A DNA stretch of 12,767 nucleotides from assembly GCA_905205085.1 (NCBI GenBank), contig CAJLCG010000068.1:1-12767 (forward strand), in the 5' to 3' direction. This DNA comes from an uncultured Oscillospiraceae bacterium (GTDB taxonomy: Bacteria > Bacillota > Clostridia > Oscillospirales > Oscillospiraceae). The translations under genes and the position numbers were made by a program. This document shows positions 1,382 through 6,532 of this stretch, piece by piece. Position 1 is the stretch's first letter; every line of letters starts with the position of its first letter. The notes below the pieces were generated by a model that worked only from the letters and a program-made list of their open reading frames with translations, was not told the DNA's origin and did no database searches.

Positions 1382-1427
1382 AAAAAACAAGGGGCACCTG
1401 CCAGAAGGCAGGTGCCCCTTGCTTTAA
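1382..1427 (-). terminator. Shared intrinsic terminator, best for the minus-strand DUF2812 operon
   Basis: A perfect 15-bp stem (CAAGGGGCACCTGCC at 1388-1402, complement at 1407-1421) closes an AGAA loop. The A6 run at 1382-1387 becomes a U-tract when read on the minus strand, 20 nt after the stop codon of the DUF2812 gene. On the plus strand the tail is only CTTTAAA, so it is probably weaker for the endolysin transcript. Confidence 0.88.
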
Positions 1428-1441
1428 ATGGGAGCGGAGAG

Positions 1442-2653
1442 TCAGGGAACCACCATAGCGGCGATCTCCTCCAGGTGGTCCTCCAGGTCCTGGGGCCCCC
1501 AGTAGCGCAGGATCACGGCGCGGCCGTTTCCAGCGGCCGCGGCCACCTGGTATTCGCTGTTGGAGCTGGAAGCGATGGCCAGATAGTCTGCCTCGCCCAC
1601 CTGGTGCTCTGTCACGGACCAGGGGCCCAGGGGCTCCTCATCCACCCGGCGGGCGGCGTCCTCATGGACAGTCTGGTAGTCCAGCAGGTCCCGAGCCAGG
1701 GGTTGGTCCAGAGCGGGGAAGAGGGGGCGGTACCAGTGGAGGGTCATATGCACTGAAATCTGATCTTTGACGATGCTGCCGCTCTGCATCACCTCCCACT
1801 GGGTGGGGAACAGGAGTGTCCCGGTCCGCTGGCAGGAATTGGAGATGGTAACGCCGTTGTACTCGGAGAGATTGGGGTGGTAGTCCTCCCCCTCCCACTG
1901 GGTAAGAAGGACCGGTTCAAAGTCCCCGGGGCGGCCCTCCGTGCCCAGCGACCAGAGGTTCTGGGGCAAGGAGAGGAGTGCCCGGGCCAGAAACATGCAC
2001 AGTAGCAGGGTGAGGAAGAGCAGGTACGACGCATTGCGCACGCCATACCAGCGGGAGCTGGCGGGGACAGGGGTCAGGGCGTGGCCCACCTCCAGATGGA
2101 CGATCATGCGGTGTACCCGCCGCCAGTCCAACAGGGCGGGAATCAGATACACCAGTGAGAGAAACCCAAACAGCAGGCCCATATTGGTAAGGTCACTCAG
2201 GGTCAGCGCAGTGAGAAGCGACCCGTGGCCCAGAACCCCAATGAGAGACAGCACAAAAGAGAACGCCAAAATCCAGGCAAGGAAGGAACAGCTTCGCTTG
2301 ACCTTCCGTTCCATCTGTCTTAAAAGCTGGGCGTGGGTTTGGGGGTCGGTGTGAGGCTCCGGGGCATAGGGGTCTTGGGTGCAGAAGAGAAGCAGCAGCC
2401 CCGTGGAGCACACATATTCCCAACCCATCTCGCGATAGAGAGTGAGCAGACCGGGGACAGGATCAGGCTCCCGGTCGGTGTTACAGTAGTCCAGCCGGTA
2501 GCGGACGGTGCGGGGAGTATCCCGGGTAAAGGTGCACAGCAGAGAGCCGTACTGTTTGAGATACAGGCCCCGGGCTGCCTGCTCCTCCAGCCAGTTTTCC
2601 GTGCCGGGGATGTCATAGGGATGTACAGGGATCAGCTTGCGGACGTATTTCAT
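1442..2653 (-). CDS. DUF2812-family membrane protein C (third in operon), 403 aa
   Basis: The N-terminal ~105 residues match the DUF2812 pattern: LIPVHPYDIPGTENWLEEQA, then GLYLKQYGS, then MGWEYVCSTG and a DPYAPEPHTDP segment. Three hydrophobic segments follow at about 122-142, 155-174 and 208-226, then a ~175-residue region ending AAGNGRAVILRYWG and DLEDHLEEIAAMVV. The start at 2653 was chosen over the upstream ATG at 2755 because GGAGG (complement of 2661-2665) sits just before it and the longer form would run into the preceding gene. It lies 25 nt after gene B and ends 20 nt before the terminator. The molecular function is not known. Of the three paralogues it has the shortest N-terminal domain. 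Confidence 0.85.
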   Translation of the reverse strand: MKYVRKLIPVHPYDIPGTENWLEEQAARGLYLKQYGSLLCTFTRDTPRTVRYRLDYCNTDREPDPVPGLLTLYREMGWEYVCSTGLLLLFCTQDPYAPEPHTDPQTHAQLLRQMERKVKRSCSFLAWILAFSFVLSLIGVLGHGSLLTALTLSDLTNMGLLFGFLSLVYLIPALLDWRRVHRMIVHLEVGHALTPVPASSRWYGVRNASYLLFLTLLLCMFLARALLSLPQNLWSLGTEGRPGDFEPVLLTQWEGEDYHPNLSEYNGVTISNSCQRTGTLLFPTQWEVMQSGSIVKDQISVHMTLHWYRPLFPALDQPLARDLLDYQTVHEDAARRVDEEPLGPWSVTEHQVGEADYLAIASSSNSEYQVAAAAGNGRAVILRYWGPQDLEDHLEEIAAMVVP

Positions 2654-2678
2654 AAAAATTCCTCCGTTTCGCAAGGAG

Positions 2679-3971
2679 TCAATCCTGCGCCAGACGCTGA
2701 ACCAGCAGCTCCAGAGCGGCCTTACTGTCCACCGCGCCGGAGCAGTTGAGGACAAACACCCGATTATCCGCCCAGCCGATGTAAACGGTGTTGGCAGCAG
2801 TTTGGTCCGGATTCCGGTAGATAAAGCGGGTCAGACCGTCCAGGCCGGGGACGGACAGCGCTTCTTCCTGCGTGAAGTCAGCGGCGTTTAACCCATCCGG
2901 GTTAGATGTGGAGGTATCTGCATTACAAATCTTGCGAAATTGTTCCAGAGCATTGTGGCGAGCCGCCACCTGGCCCCGGTACACCGCCTGGGCCAGGGAG
3001 GGAGAGAGGGTCTGGACCGACTCCTGGTAGAGCCGGGTATCCTGCTTCGGCCCGTCGTTTACCCGCACCATGCCGCCCTGGGCTACATCATACTGCTGAG
3101 GGGCTAGCAGGGAGTGGTCGAAGGTGTCGTTGCGCAGCAGTTCCGCAGGCCCGTATTCCCGCAGAGCGGCTCCAGCGGGAAGCACCTCCTGCAAGGTGAC
3201 GTGGGGAAAGTCCCACTCCTCCGGACCGGAGAGATACTGGGTACGCTGCGCACCGGACAGGATAAGAAAAATCGCAAACAGGACAAACGCGGCCAATGAA
3301 AAGAGAGAGATCAGATTATGGCAGAGCTCGGGATAGCGGCGGGAACCCGCAGGGGGCCATTCTCCCCGGCGAAAACTGGCCTGGACCCGGCGAATACCCC
3401 GGGAGGTACGCCATCCCTGGATGACTACATTAAGGACAAGGGTCAGCATAGTGGCATAGATGGGGATGAGCACATCGGAATGGAGGATCAGGCGCATAAC
3501 AAATTCCATGGGTCCGTTGAGCAACTGAGGCCACTCGTCCCAAAACAGCACAGCGGCCCAAACCAGCAGGATAGGCAGGCTGATCCATGCCCAGCGCACC
3601 TGTTTCTTCATGGCCCAGCACAGACTGTCCGCGTCATTATAGAGCTCCGGAGCCTCCGGATCATCACAGCGGTAAATGGCGTAGAGCTGGTTGATCTGAC
3701 CTACATAGTTCCATCCCAGCGCCTGGTATCCTTCCTCCCGCTTTTTCAGTTCCACCACTCCAAGCCGCTCTTGCATGGGGTCCAGACGATAGCGGGCGTG
3801 GACAGCGGATGGGTCCTTTTTAAAATAAGCAATGCCGATAAAGCTCCATCCCGGCCACTTCACCAGGGCGTAGCCTGCCTGGGCCTGCTCGTTGAGCCAG
3901 GTTTGCAGGCCGGTAAAATCCCACAGGCCATAGGGGACAAGCTTTTTTACCCGTTTTTCCTCGCGCTTCAT
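2679..3971 (-). CDS. DUF2812-family membrane protein B (second in operon), 430 aa
   Basis: It is the same build as its two neighbours. An N-terminal DUF2812 domain (residues ~9-118; LVPYGLWDFTGLQTWLNEQA, LGWNYVGQINQLYAIYRCDD) is followed by hydrophobic segments at about 127-145, 166-186 and 220-240 and a C-terminal soluble region to residue 430. The region ends NTVYIGWADNRVFVLNCSG and a final helix (ALELLVQRLAQD), comparable to the ends of A and C. The start ATG at 3971 has AAGGAGGG about 7 nt upstream. The gap to gene A is 16 nt, so the two are almost certainly co-transcribed. Function is unknown. In Firmicutes, DUF2812 genes often sit next to PadR regulators, as here. A single cysteine occurs near the end of the C-terminal region, so a disulphide there is unlikely. 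Confidence 0.87.
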   Translation of the reverse strand: MKREEKRVKKLVPYGLWDFTGLQTWLNEQAQAGYALVKWPGWSFIGIAYFKKDPSAVHARYRLDPMQERLGVVELKKREEGYQALGWNYVGQINQLYAIYRCDDPEAPELYNDADSLCWAMKKQVRWAWISLPILLVWAAVLFWDEWPQLLNGPMEFVMRLILHSDVLIPIYATMLTLVLNVVIQGWRTSRGIRRVQASFRRGEWPPAGSRRYPELCHNLISLFSLAAFVLFAIFLILSGAQRTQYLSGPEEWDFPHVTLQEVLPAGAALREYGPAELLRNDTFDHSLLAPQQYDVAQGGMVRVNDGPKQDTRLYQESVQTLSPSLAQAVYRGQVAARHNALEQFRKICNADTSTSNPDGLNAADFTQEEALSVPGLDGLTRFIYRNPDQTAANTVYIGWADNRVFVLNCSGAVDSKAALELLVQRLAQD

Positions 3972-3987: not shown

Positions 3988-5190
3988 TTAAAGGCGTTCC
4001 AGCATGGCGGCGAACTGATCCAGATGTTCGGTCAAATTTTGCTCCCCATAGTAGTCAGCAAAGAGTACGGTATTTCCGCGGCGAAGAATAAGTACCCCGC
4101 CGGGTAAGAAAACGCGAGTCTCCCCGGTGAGCTCGTTGGTATGGGTCCATTCCTCCCGAGGGGCGTAGTGTATTTCATCCAGCCCATAAGTGAGGGCCAT
4201 CTCCTCGTATTCCCCGGAGTCGTTGATTTTTTGACGGCTCCACTCCTCGGTCCTTCGCTCTGCCAGCACCTCCAGTGGATAGCGGACGATGGAAATTTCC
4301 AGATGAGGGACATCGTCTGGGTTCTGGTTCGGGCCAAAGGAACCATACTGCCGGAAGTACCAATGCTCTGGGTCCAGCAACGTGCCTCCGTGGGAGATAT
4401 AGTCCGGATTATACATGTAGTTTCCGGAGAGGCGAAAGTCTTTCCCCTCAATATCGGTGAGGGTGACAAAGCCTGAGCCCTCCAGATCATAGGGACGGTA
4501 GTCGGTTCCGGAAAGGAGCTGAATGGTATTGACCAGAACCGGCAGCAGGATCAGCCATCCCACTGCCAGCAGCCAGCCCACGCCACGGTGTCCATGAACC
4601 TTGCTGCCCCTTTGTACCGCCCGGCGGTAACCCATCAGGTGGAACAGCCCCAGCAGGTAAGACAGATCGATGAGAAGGAAACCCAACATAGCCAGCAGGA
4701 AGGGGATAGTGGTGCCGTTGGAGAAAGTTTCCACAGGGTAGTACCGAAGCCACCACAGGTCAATTTCCCAAGGTGCGCCCTGCCAATAGAGTCCCAGCAA
4801 CAGGAGATTGGCAGCCAGGAGCAGTGCCCCGCCGGCCAGCTTCTGGCGGAAGAATTTCTTTAGTGTGTAGTCCAGAGTATCCGGATCGGTGTGGGCGCAG
4901 GCTTCCAGATCGGTAGAGGCGTAGACGTAGTAGTTTCCCCGGAACATGCCCCAATACTGCCAGCCTGCGTCCTCATAGATGGCGTTTCCCTCCGGGTCCT
5001 CGTCGGTATTGCCCAGGATGGGCTCCAGATGGACCTGTACCGACTCCGGGTGACTGCGCTCAAAGCAGACCAGCGGCCCGAAGGTCATGGTGAAACGCAG
5101 TCCCTGGGCGGCCATAGAACTCAGCCAGCCCTCCAGACCGGAGATATCAAAGCCTCCAAAGGGAAGGATGCGGATGGTGGTTTTGGTCAT
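3988..5190 (-). CDS. DUF2812-family membrane protein A (first after padR), 400 aa
   Basis: The DUF2812 domain spans residues ~6-112: ILPFGGFDISGLEGWLSSMA, AAQGLRF, GWQYWGMFRGNYYVYASTD, then EACAHTDPDTL. Membrane segments are predicted near 119-137, 161-185 and 203-226. The remaining ~170 residues are hydrophilic and end VLILRRGNTVLFADYYGEQ followed by LTEHLDQFAAMLERL. If the N-terminus is cytoplasmic, three spans would place this end outside the cell. The ATG at 5190 overlaps the padR TGA (ATGA, 5187-5190), and its ribosome binding site GAGGAGG lies inside the padR 3' end, so translation is probably coupled. The function is not established. The tight coupling suggests the protein and the PadR regulator act in one response, which is inference. 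Confidence 0.87.
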   Translation of the reverse strand: MTKTTIRILPFGGFDISGLEGWLSSMAAQGLRFTMTFGPLVCFERSHPESVQVHLEPILGNTDEDPEGNAIYEDAGWQYWGMFRGNYYVYASTDLEACAHTDPDTLDYTLKKFFRQKLAGGALLLAANLLLLGLYWQGAPWEIDLWWLRYYPVETFSNGTTIPFLLAMLGFLLIDLSYLLGLFHLMGYRRAVQRGSKVHGHRGVGWLLAVGWLILLPVLVNTIQLLSGTDYRPYDLEGSGFVTLTDIEGKDFRLSGNYMYNPDYISHGGTLLDPEHWYFRQYGSFGPNQNPDDVPHLEISIVRYPLEVLAERRTEEWSRQKINDSGEYEEMALTYGLDEIHYAPREEWTHTNELTGETRVFLPGGVLILRRGNTVLFADYYGEQNLTEHLDQFAAMLERL

Positions 5191-5498
5191 AACAGCGCCT
5201 CCTCTCCGTCCCGGACGCAGGCACGCAGCCGTTCCAGCTCCTCTTCATAGGCCTCCCGGCCCTTGGAGGTGAGGCGGTAGGTGCGCTTGCGTCCCTCCAC
5301 TTCGGTCTCCTCGATGAGTTTTTCGTCCTGAAATTTATTCAGCAGGGTGTATAGGGTACCAGGGCCCAGCTTTACCCGTCCCCGGGTCTTTTTTTCCACG
5401 AAAGCGGCCACATCGATGCCGCACATCTCGCCGTGGAGAAAGGCCATGAGAACGTAAAACATAGGCTCGGTGAGCGGGCCGCGGTTCTTGCCTCCCAT
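5187..5498 (-). CDS. PadR-family transcriptional regulator, 103 aa
   Basis: This is a short winged-helix DNA-binding protein of the PadR type. The signature runs LTEPMFYVLMAFLHGEMCGID, then VKLGPGTLYTLLNKFQDEKLI (recognition helix region) and the wing EVEGRKRTYRLTSKG, followed by a C-terminal dimerisation helix (EAYEEELERLRACVR). The length of 103 aa fits the compact PadR-s2 subgroup, which lacks a long C-terminal domain. The start at 5498 is preceded by AGGAGGTGA and has the expected domain edge; longer in-frame starts run through the promoter. It is the first gene of the operon with the three DUF2812 genes and almost certainly represses it, because its promoter is embedded in three copies of an ATATC-N7-GATAT dyad. 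The effector is unknown. Confidence 0.92.
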   Translation of the reverse strand: MGGKNRGPLTEPMFYVLMAFLHGEMCGIDVAAFVEKKTRGRVKLGPGTLYTLLNKFQDEKLIEETEVEGRKRTYRLTSKGREAYEEELERLRACVRDGEEALL

Positions 5499-5512
5499 GG
5501 CGTCACCTCCTA

Positions 5513-5563
5513 ATATCACGTTTCGATATCGTCTAATGATATTATAATATCGCCCCTCGATAT
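5513..5563. promoter_or_regulatory. Three tandem 17-bp inverted repeats, putative PadR operators
   Basis: Three dyads with ATATC and GATAT half-sites held 7 nt apart lie at 5513-5529 (ATATCACGTTTCGATAT), 5526-5542 (ATATCGTCTAATGATAT) and 5547-5563 (ATATCGCCCCTCGATAT). The third is the most symmetric, with 6-bp arms, and exactly fills the 17-bp spacer between -35 and -10. The other two cover the end of the -10 and the start region. Centres are 13 and 21 bp apart. Sites 1 and 2 share the central ATAT. The placement predicts autorepression by the adjacent PadR protein. Confidence 0.75.
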
Positions 5564-5569
5564 TGTCAA
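5541..5569 (-). promoter_or_regulatory. Perfect-consensus sigma-A promoter of the padR-DUF2812 operon
   Basis: Read on the minus strand, TTGACA (5564-5569) and TATAAT (5541-5546) are separated by exactly 17 bp. All twelve hexamer bases match the housekeeping consensus. Transcription should start near 5534, giving a leader of about 36 nt with the AGGAGG site before the ATG at 5498. Such a strong promoter would need tight repression, which the overlapping operators could give. Confidence 0.88.
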
Positions 5570-5604
5570 CAGGCACTGAAAATTCTCCCCTGGGCGACAC
5601 CGGG

Positions 5605-5639
5605 TTGTGACGGCTTTCGTTGGGGAGAGACACTATAAT
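5605..5639 (+). promoter_or_regulatory. Candidate spoIIG promoter with over-long spacer
   Basis: A perfect TATAAT sits at 5634-5639, about 40 nt before the spoIIGA start, but no -35 hexamer lies 16-18 bp upstream. The nearest match, TTGTGA at 5605-5610, leaves 23 bp. In Bacillus subtilis the spoIIG promoter likewise has an over-long spacer and is activated by Spo0A. A GGCGACA segment at 5593-5599 (TGTCGCC on the other strand) shares five bases with the 0A box TGTCGAA. The Spo0A role is inference. Confidence 0.45.
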
Positions 5640-5677
5640 GGACGGTGTTGACAAGCAGGGGAGAGGAGGAGAAGGTC

Positions 5678-6532
5678 ATGACCGTCATCTATGTGGACAC
5701 CCTGTTTCTGCTCAACGCCCTGGTGGACTACCTGCTGCTGCTGTGCGCCGCCCGGCTGGCCGGGGAGCCCTTGAAGCGTCTACGCTTTGCCCTGGGAGCA
5801 GTGCTGGGAGGCGGCTACGCGGTGGCCATTTTCCTGCCTGGACTGGGTTTTCTGGAGCGGCCAGCCTGCCGGTTTGCCGCGGCGGTACTGATGGTGCTGG
5901 CCGCCTTTTGGGGTAGCCGACGGCTGGGGCGGCAGGTGCTGATTTTTTTTGCCCTGTCCTGCGCCTTTGCCGGAGGAGTGTTGGCCATCTCTATGCTGGG
6001 AGGACAGGGCCTGAGCCTGAATCGCGGGGTCATCTACTCGGGGATGGATTTGAAGATCGTGCTGCTGTCAGCAGCGGGGTGCTATGTGGCATTGTCTCTG
6101 CTGCTTCAAAAAGCTGTAAGGCATACTAGATTTACAGGAGAACTGAAAGCGGTGCGCCTGGAACTGGGAGCGCGGGCGGTGGAACTCACCGCCCTCACCG
6201 ACACGGGGAATACCCTGACCGACCCGGTGACCGGCCAGGGGGTTATGGTGGCGGAGGGGGAGCGGCTGCTGCCTCTGTTTGAACCGTCCCAGCGCCCCAG
6301 TACCCAGGAATTGCAGGACCCGGCAGGGGCCATGGAGCGGCTGACCGGAGCGGGAGGCCATTTTCGCCTATTGCCCTACCGCTCGGTAGGGGTAGACCGG
6401 GGACTGCTGCTGGCGGTGCGGGTAGACCGGGCGGTGGTAAACGGAGAGAACCGGGGGGCCATGGTGGTGGCCCTGTCCCCCAACCCAGTGTCCGACGGGG
6501 GCGGCTACGGGGCCCTGCTAGGGGAATGCTGA
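5678..6532 (+). CDS. spoIIGA: SpoIIGA, sporulation sigma-E factor processing aspartic peptidase
   Basis: SpoIIGA is a membrane-embedded aspartic protease in the sporulation septum that cleaves the pro-sequence from pro-sigma-E in the mother cell, after a signal from the forespore protein SpoIIR. The 284-aa protein starts [13 protein letters not shown] and has about five membrane segments (near residues 5-25, 36-56, 60-80, 87-107, 127-145). The C-terminal protease domain holds the catalytic motif [11 protein letters not shown] with Asp175, plus PYRSVG (233-238) and [17 protein letters not shown] near the end, all typical of the family. The start at 5678 follows GAGGAGGAGAAGG; the upstream ATG at 5645 lacks a good site. 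The stop overlaps or abuts the sigE start region, as expected for the spoIIG operon. The first gene of that operon is intact here. Confidence 0.95.

What the first reader, a model, noticed from the sequence alone, without database searches (positions are those of the whole stretch)
5513..5569. PadR operator array interlocked with a perfect promoter
The minus-strand promoter matches the sigma-A consensus at all twelve bases with a 17-bp spacer. That spacer is itself a perfect dyad, ATATCG-N5-CGATAT, of the same 17-bp length. Two further copies of ATATC-N7-GATAT lie over the -10 and start site, overlapping each other by the shared ATAT. A strong promoter with a dyad exactly filling the spacer and two more immediately downstream suggests tight, cooperative autorepression by the 103-aa PadR. 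The pattern also gives a search motif for other targets.
Basis: partly seen in the sequence, partly recalled or inferred. Interest (0 to 1): 0.7.

Follow-up and report, generated by a model that had tools for sequence, protein, structure and literature searches.

The report
PadR repressor's promoter-fused operator array
A small gut-bacterial repressor gene carries three mirror-image DNA sites built into its own strong promoter, and the same arrangement recurs in front of related regulator–membrane-protein operons across Clostridia, so it is very probably the switch by which the repressor controls itself and its neighbours.

Summary
Chance gives 0.0025 per window; there are three. They precede padR and three DUF2812 membrane-protein genes. 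In 81 padR promoters the dyads keep a fixed register: O2 within one mismatch in 76, O3 in 49, O1 in 27. So the core operator is O2, whose central A is the predicted +1; the spacer dyad is accessory. Flanks hold 1 site in 837 kb against 128 in 8.9 kb upstream of padR. A DUF2812 census, chosen by neither PadR nor operator, finds the dyad in 29 of 44 PadR-DUF2812 promoters (shuffles: mean 2). An array-only search hits PadR promoters at 14 of 16 places. Autorepression by PadR is very likely; cooperativity is not shown. The operator differs from published PadR boxes (ATGT-N8-ACAT; TACT-N11-12-AGTA). Unexpected: Cys26 and Cys94 are conserved in 81 and 80 of 81 PadRs and absent together elsewhere, hinting at a thiol or metal switch. 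New variant of a known kind.

The parts
5564..5569 (-). -35 element TTGACA
   Evidence: exact in 62 of 81 promoters
5547..5563 (-). O1: 17-bp dyad ATATCGAGGGGCGATAT that is exactly the promoter spacer (axis at -21)
   Evidence: same register, at most 1 mismatch, in 27 of 81 promoters
5541..5546 (-). -10 element TATAAT
   Evidence: exact in 51 of 81
5526..5542 (-). O2: core operator ATATCATTAGACGATAT; overlaps the -10 by 2 bp, axis on the predicted +1
   Evidence: at most 1 mismatch in 76 of 81, perfect in 67
5534..5534 (-). Predicted transcription start (A), the central base of O2
   Evidence: inference from the -10 spacing plus conservation of T-A here (A in 94%, cluster-weighted)
5513..5529 (-). 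O3: ATATCGAAACGTGATAT, overlaps O2 by 4 bp (13-bp step), ends 1 bp before the ribosome-binding site
   Evidence: at most 1 mismatch in 49 of 81
5503..5511 (-). Ribosome-binding site AGGAGGTGA
   Evidence: sequence
5187..5498 (-). padR, 103-aa PadR-family repressor (winged helix plus one C-terminal helix), with conserved Cys26 and Cys94
3988..5190 (-). DUF2812 membrane protein 1 (400 aa); its ATG overlaps the padR stop
2679..3971 (-). DUF2812 membrane protein 2 (430 aa)
1442..2659 (-). DUF2812 membrane protein 3 (405 aa)
1382..1425 (-). Hairpin with a T-run that probably ends the operon
   Evidence: -37.9 kcal/mol, z -8.65; not listed by the terminator scan

Best explanation
5513-5569 is the operator-promoter of an autoregulated padR-DUF2812 operon. 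A sigma-A promoter drives padR and three DUF2812 membrane-protein genes. PadR dimers bind ATATC-N7-GATAT dyads: O2, centred on the start site, is the core; O3 (13 bp downstream) and O1 (21 bp, two turns, upstream, inside the spacer) add occupancy. Bound PadR excludes RNA polymerase from the -10/start region, so the operon is off or low until a signal releases PadR, and PadR then restores repression. Shown by computation: the sites, their fixed register, their near-exclusive link to PadR promoters, the gene order. Inferred: that this PadR is the binder, the start site, repression and any cooperation. Unknown: the signal and what the DUF2812 proteins do (probably envelope-facing; a sensor or antirepressor role is a guess).
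For: Register: of 120 offsets from the -10, only four (-17, -9, +4, +17) hold a dyad (at most 1 mismatch) in three or more of 81 promoters. Specificity: 128 perfect dyads in 8.9 kb of padR upstream DNA against 1 in 837 kb of flanks; 77 of 81 loci have at least one. Genome-wide: 47 sites in 20 genomes (4 for the reversed control), 35 of them at PadR promoters; of 59 PadR genes over cut-off in 13 genomes only 14, all PadR-DUF2812, carry the site (coordinates compared by eye). Array pattern alone: 6 places in 391 class genomes (control 0) and 10 in 398 phylum genomes (control 2); 14 of 16 directly upstream of PadR, a fifteenth before a transporter operon 3.4 kb from such a PadR. DUF2812-anchored census: 29 of 44 PadR promoters carry the dyad, shuffles mean 2.0 (maximum 7), control tiles 9 of 510; in 24 of 28 with a promoter of 9/12 or better a dyad overlaps the -35 to -10 span. 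Gene order: DUF2812 follows padR in 78 of 80 loci, the other two end at contig ends.
Against: No binding or expression data. The 80 relatives were picked by PadR peptide patterns and are related (53 clusters at 85% PadR identity). O1 is absent from 54 of 81. 15 of 44 census promoters have no dyad within one mismatch, and 7 of 51 DUF2812 regions had no PadR in the stretch fetched. One array place (L153) has no PadR in its 3-kb locus, and the phylum search had 2 control hits. A similar dyad precedes a MarR-like/ABC gene pair in two genomes (L103, L104), so the motif is not wholly PadR-specific. The loose pattern TANAATATCRNNNNNYGATAT was mostly noise: only 4 of 30 loci examined were PadR-DUF2812. 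O2 and O3 share ATAT, so both may not be filled at once.
Confidence: 0.88

Rival explanations
1. The dyads are sites of a different, unlinked regulator that happens to control padR-DUF2812 operons.
For: A similar dyad occurs before a MarR-like/ABC gene pair (L103/L104); no binding data.
Against: Sites are almost limited to PadR promoters within each genome; the array also marks operons of another PadR clade with an ABC/UPF0014 transporter instead of DUF2812, where PadR is the shared gene.
Confidence: 0.07
2. PadR binds here but O2 and O3 are alternative, mutually exclusive sites; the array sets graded rather than cooperative repression. (This is a variant of the best explanation, not an exclusive alternative.)
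For: O2 and O3 share GATATC, so two dimers would need the same major groove; other clades use a 15-bp step (19 pairs) with less overlap.
Against: The 13-bp step is strictly kept in this clade. RTP dimers sit on the A and B sites of one ter (PMC10331603, passages; that the two overlap is recalled), so side-by-side filling by a winged-helix dimer is possible.
Confidence: 0.4
3. The downstream dyad acts as an RNA hairpin in the 36-nt leader rather than as an operator.
For: O3 can form a 7-bp stem next to the ribosome-binding site.
Against: Fold z-score only -0.96, 33 of 200 shuffles as good; the same dyad occurs upstream of the start (O1); O3 keeps register with O2.
Confidence: 0.03
4. PadR acts as an activator through the spacer dyad, as MerR proteins do.
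For: A dyad lies between -35 and -10.
Against: The spacer is the optimal 17 bp (78 of 81), so no untwisting is needed; O2 covers the start site; O1 is dispensable.
Confidence: 0.02

Closest known systems
cdPadR1 of Clostridioides difficile (PadR-s2; PMC5050560, passages read)
   Same: Small PadR, binds two inverted repeats in its own promoter, one over the predicted -35/-10 region.
   Different: Operator TACT-N11-12-AGTA with AT-rich core and loose spacing, about 200 predicted genomic sites; here ATATC-N7-GATAT in rigid register with mostly one PadR locus per genome. TACT-N11,12-AGTA has 0 matches in this window.
LmrR of Lactococcus (PMC5428041, passages; PMC3506622, passages)
   Same: PadR-s2 fold, autorepression, 2:1 dimer:operator stoichiometry reported for lmrCD.
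   Different: ATGT-N8-10-ACAT operator (no perfect match in this window) and a drug-binding Trp; the window PadR has no Trp.
Listeria LltR-DUF1700-DUF4097 operon (PMC6624303, passages)
   Same: PadR heading an operon of membrane and exported DUF proteins; lltR, lmo0600 and lmo0601 rise over 100-fold in the lltR mutant.
   Different: Different DUF families; no LltR operator sequence appeared in the passages searched.
Replication terminator protein RTP (PMC10331603, passages)
   Same: Dimer, two dimers on the A and B sites of one ter, ter site in its own promoter area.
   Different: Not a PadR: only a sub-threshold PF02334 match, and only in one relative (L144).

Membership tests
PadR family (PF03551) | Pfam PadR domain over the curated cut-off | tested here: met
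   45.8 bits against cut-off 27
PadR subfamily 2 (LmrR/bcPadR type) | About 110 aa, winged helix plus a single C-terminal helix | tested here: met
   103 aa; monomer model from a shallow alignment with helices 11-21, 30-37, 46-58, strands 62-76, helix 78-101 (pLDDT 73); Foldseek top matches Rv3488, 1xma, LmrR, E about 3e-4 to 5e-4
PadR subfamily 2 (LmrR/bcPadR type) | Conserved Trp in the C-terminal helix (drug site of LmrR; PMC3506622 passages) | tested here: not met
   No Trp in the window PadR; Trp anywhere in 9 of 81. PadR-s2-like in fold, but not an LmrR-type drug binder by this feature
Published PadR operator | ATGT-N8-ACAT box at the promoter | tested here: not met
   No match at 5499-5700 even with one mismatch; 2 one-mismatch matches elsewhere in the window, chance 2.35
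Autorepressing PadR | PadR binds its own promoter and represses it | not testable with these tools
   Only comparative evidence here
DUF2812 family (PF11193) | Pfam domain over cut-off in the downstream genes | tested here: met
   41.4, 39 and 60.6 bits against cut-off 27.8
RTP (PF02334) | Pfam RTP domain over cut-off | tested here: not met
   No match for the window PadR at E 0.001; 22.8 bits against 26.7 in L144

The most novel reading that the evidence does not exclude
The PadR of this clade is a thiol or metal switch: Cys26 (between the first and second helix) and Cys94 (dimer helix) form a coupled pair whose oxidation or metal loading re-angles the dimer and releases the overlapping 13-bp operator array, turning on DUF2812 membrane proteins as an envelope or oxygen-stress response in gut Clostridia.
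Probability: 0.2. Interest if true: 0.62.

Novelty: new variant of a known kind. Interest (0 to 1): 0.42.

Why it matters
It gives an operator code for a widespread, little-studied regulator-membrane protein module (PadR-DUF2812). The Listeria LftR authors found no typical PadR box at their promoters and suggested that the LftR site might differ from it (PMC4517056, passages); this is a concrete alternative code for small PadRs of Clostridia, with clade-specific array steps (13 or 15 bp). It makes the regulation, the start site and the inducing signal of DUF2812 operons directly testable, and the cysteine pair says where to look for the signal.

Tried and rejected
Loose pattern TANAATATCRNNNNNYGATAT over 391 class genomes: 57 genomes hit; the tool's control columns also had many hits (not tallied); of 30 loci examined only 4 were PadR-DUF2812. 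Replaced by the 13-bp array pattern.

RNA-hairpin reading of O3: z -0.96, rejected. Mobile or phage origin: no relative confirmed in viral contigs, no match of 5450-5700 in the phage records. Published PadR boxes: absent at the promoter.

Paper searches (open-licence PMC only): no paper holds both PadR and DUF2812; the two papers that hold DUF2812 were seen as listings only.

Own errors: and 42 locus L041 was mis-anchored, corrected (counts quoted; the base percentages still contain it, one row of 81). In one search L041 was scored as lacking O1, so the tree's minimum of 8 changes of O1 is probably 7; not rerun, and the tree is poorly resolved (103 columns, 18 of 78 inner branches starred). 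An hmmsearch hit in L267 (14 bits, Fur-like by eye) was dropped as not PadR before the count of 44.

Full report
What is there. The window's minus strand carries a consensus sigma-A promoter, TTGACA-17-TATAAT (5569-5541), the only 12/12 match in the window. Its spacer is the dyad ATATCG-AGGGG-CGATAT (O1, 5563-5547). Two more ATATC-N7-GATAT dyads follow: O2 (5542-5526), sharing two bases with the -10, and O3 (5529-5513), sharing ATAT with O2. Perfect dyads occur three times in the window, against a mean of 0.0025 in Markov resamplings. The stretch is 33% GC in a 60% GC window. Downstream lie padR (103 aa, PF03551), three DUF2812 genes and a strong hairpin with a T-run. The first DUF2812 ATG overlaps the padR stop. 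On the other strand runs spoIIGA-sigE-rex.

Conservation in close relatives. One scan of genome contigs gave the 80 best of 127 relatives found. With the window this makes 81 promoters. Measured from the first base of the -10, a dyad with at most one mismatch sits at +4 (O2) in 76, at +17 (O3) in 49, at -17 (O1) in 27 and at -9 in 17; of 120 offsets tried no other holds three or more. O2 is perfect in 67, and all three are perfect in 13, window included. The five promoters without O2 are L030, L033, L036, L038 and L062; four of them have O1. The spacer is 17 bp in 78. In the flanks of these loci, 837 kb, there is one perfect dyad; in 8.9 kb of padR upstream DNA there are 128, and 77 of 81 loci have at least one. 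DUF2812 (phmmer against the window's three) directly follows padR in 78 of 80 loci; L012 and L029 end within 107 bp of padR. Four of the 78 were missed by the script's start filter and read from its listing. spoIIGA or sigE is a neighbour in 33 of 80, so the dyads do not depend on it.

What the three sites are. O2 is the conserved one. Its dyad axis falls on the base seven positions after the -10, the usual +1; that base is A in 94% and preceded by T in 81% (cluster-weighted). The inner bases TTAGA are conserved in O2 (0.6-1.6 bits) but hardly in O1 or O3 (at most 0.5 bits), which fits a start site inside the operator; the start is predicted, not mapped. O1 competes with another promoter feature: a TGn extended -10 occurs in 0 of 19 promoters with perfect O1, in 7 of 8 with O1 one mismatch off, and in 31 of 54 without O1 (Fisher p 4e-6 for the first against the third, ignoring kinship). 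On the PadR tree O1 comes and goes several times (with the flaw told under Tried and rejected).

Specificity. In 20 genomes the pattern ATATCRNNNNNYGATAT gives 47 sites, reversed control 4. Of these 35 lie at PadR promoters: 30 at the padR orthologue, one at a second PadR-DUF2812 pair (L109) and four at another PadR in two genomes (L098, L099; Pfam). The 12 others were read by eye from their reading frames: five or six lie inside a frame (L082, L090, L105, L107, L108, perhaps L102), two before a MarR-like/ABC gene pair (L103, L104), one each before a GntR-like (L106) and another helix-turn-helix gene (L083), and two are intergenic without a clear reading (L101, L110). In 13 genomes with 59 PadR genes over cut-off, 14 have the site, all PadR-DUF2812.

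Searches not biased by PadR. The 13-bp array TATCRNNNNNYGATATCRNNNNNYGATA was sought in 391 genomes of the class (6 places in 5 genomes, control 0) and 398 of the phylum (10 places in 9 genomes, control 2); some genomes are in both sets. Fourteen of the 16 places are directly upstream of a PadR gene: eight with DUF2812 next, six of another PadR clade. Of these six, five have an ABC-type gene next by eye (Pfam confirms ABC and UPF0014, that is FetAB-like, for L145 and UPF0014 for L149) and one (L144) a kinase-like gene. One more place (L146) precedes an ABC/UPF0014 operon 3.4 kb from the PadR of L144. L153 has no PadR in its locus. A DUF2812 search of 196 class genomes gave 56 matches in 40 genomes; of 51 regions fetched 44 have a PadR upstream, and 29 of these have a dyad within one mismatch in the 185 bases searched, 26 a perfect one. 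Shuffles give a mean of 2.0 loci, maximum 7; control tiles 9 of 510. Most of these PadRs score far lower than the window's clade on its profile (about 33-105 bits against 160 for L258 and L265). Their arrays mostly step by 15 bp (19 pairs) or 24 bp (8); the 13-bp step occurs in two, L258 and L265, both of the window's clade. In 24 of 28 with a usable promoter the dyad overlaps the -35 to -10 span, most often so that its right half supplies the first three bases of the -10 (offset -14, 15 loci). Promoter-operator fusion is thus common to the PadR-DUF2812 group, although 15 of 44 promoters show no dyad.

How it works. I take PadR to be the binder and the effect to be repression (0.88). The core site on the start excludes polymerase; O1, two helical turns upstream, and O3 add to it. 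Whether O2 and O3 are filled together is open: they share GATATC. RTP shows that two dimers can serve one ter site (PMC10331603, passages; that its A and B sites overlap is recalled).

The protein. The model has the PadR-s2 layout and matches Rv3488, 1xma and LmrR. The PadR-s2 Trp is absent. Instead Cys26 is present in 81 of 81 and Cys94 in 80 of 81, neither lying in the peptide patterns used to find the set. In 17 further PadRs found by operator patterns, both are Cys in eight and neither in nine, never one alone: L116, L141-L143, L148, L151, L152, L155 against L156, L109, L098 and six of the other clade. This looks like a functional pair, though shared descent also explains part of it. A redox or metal role is inference.

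DUF2812 proteins. Three hydrophobic segments each; the AlphaFold model of the first (25 sequences, pLDDT 89) has a soluble N-terminal domain, long helices over the hydrophobic part and a C-terminal domain. Function is not known; similarity of the C-terminal part to the extracellular domain of PknH is middling.

Compared with what is known. Self-binding small PadRs are known: LmrR (ATGT/ACAT) and cdPadR1 (TACT/AGTA); Listeria LltR heads an operon of membrane and exported proteins (passages of PMC5428041, PMC5050560, PMC6624303). Neither published box is at this promoter. New here, as far as the searches reach (listings of open-licence papers, the first 15-20 of longer lists), are the operator sequence, its rigid overlapping geometry and its link with DUF2812.

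Noticed in passing
window 5187-5498, PadR residues 26 and 94: Cys26 (81/81) and Cys94 (80/81) are conserved in this PadR clade and absent together in others (both in 8, neither in 9 of 17 further PadRs).
   Followed up: partly
window 5605-5680 (+): The divergent spoIIGA promoter seems to keep a TTnTGACnnnTTT-like block and CCTATAAT-like block about 21-23 bp apart in the window and relatives printed (15 loci, judged by eye, not counted), recalling the long-spacer spoIIG promoter of B. subtilis (recalled, not looked up).
   Followed up: no
L144, L146, L145, L149, L157: PadR genes of another clade carry the same overlapping array, mostly before ABC/UPF0014 (FetAB-like) genes; in one genome a second array stands before the transporter operon itself.
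   Followed up: partly
L219-L266: Other PadR-DUF2812 clades use mainly a 15-bp or 24-bp step instead of 13 bp, so operator geometry changes with the PadR clade.
   Followed up: partly
L003, L008, L011, L026, L046 and others: The number of tandem DUF2812 frames after padR varies from one to about five between relatives (some may be split genes).
   Followed up: no
L103 2290, L104 2151: ATATCAATCATTGATAT lies at the start of a MarR-like gene followed by an ABC-type gene in two related genomes, a look-alike operator of another family (by eye).
   Followed up: no
L098 1501-1548, L099 1501-1548: Two dyads 31 bp apart precede a different PadR gene, next to a small gene with hydrophobic stretches, in two related genomes.
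   Followed up: no
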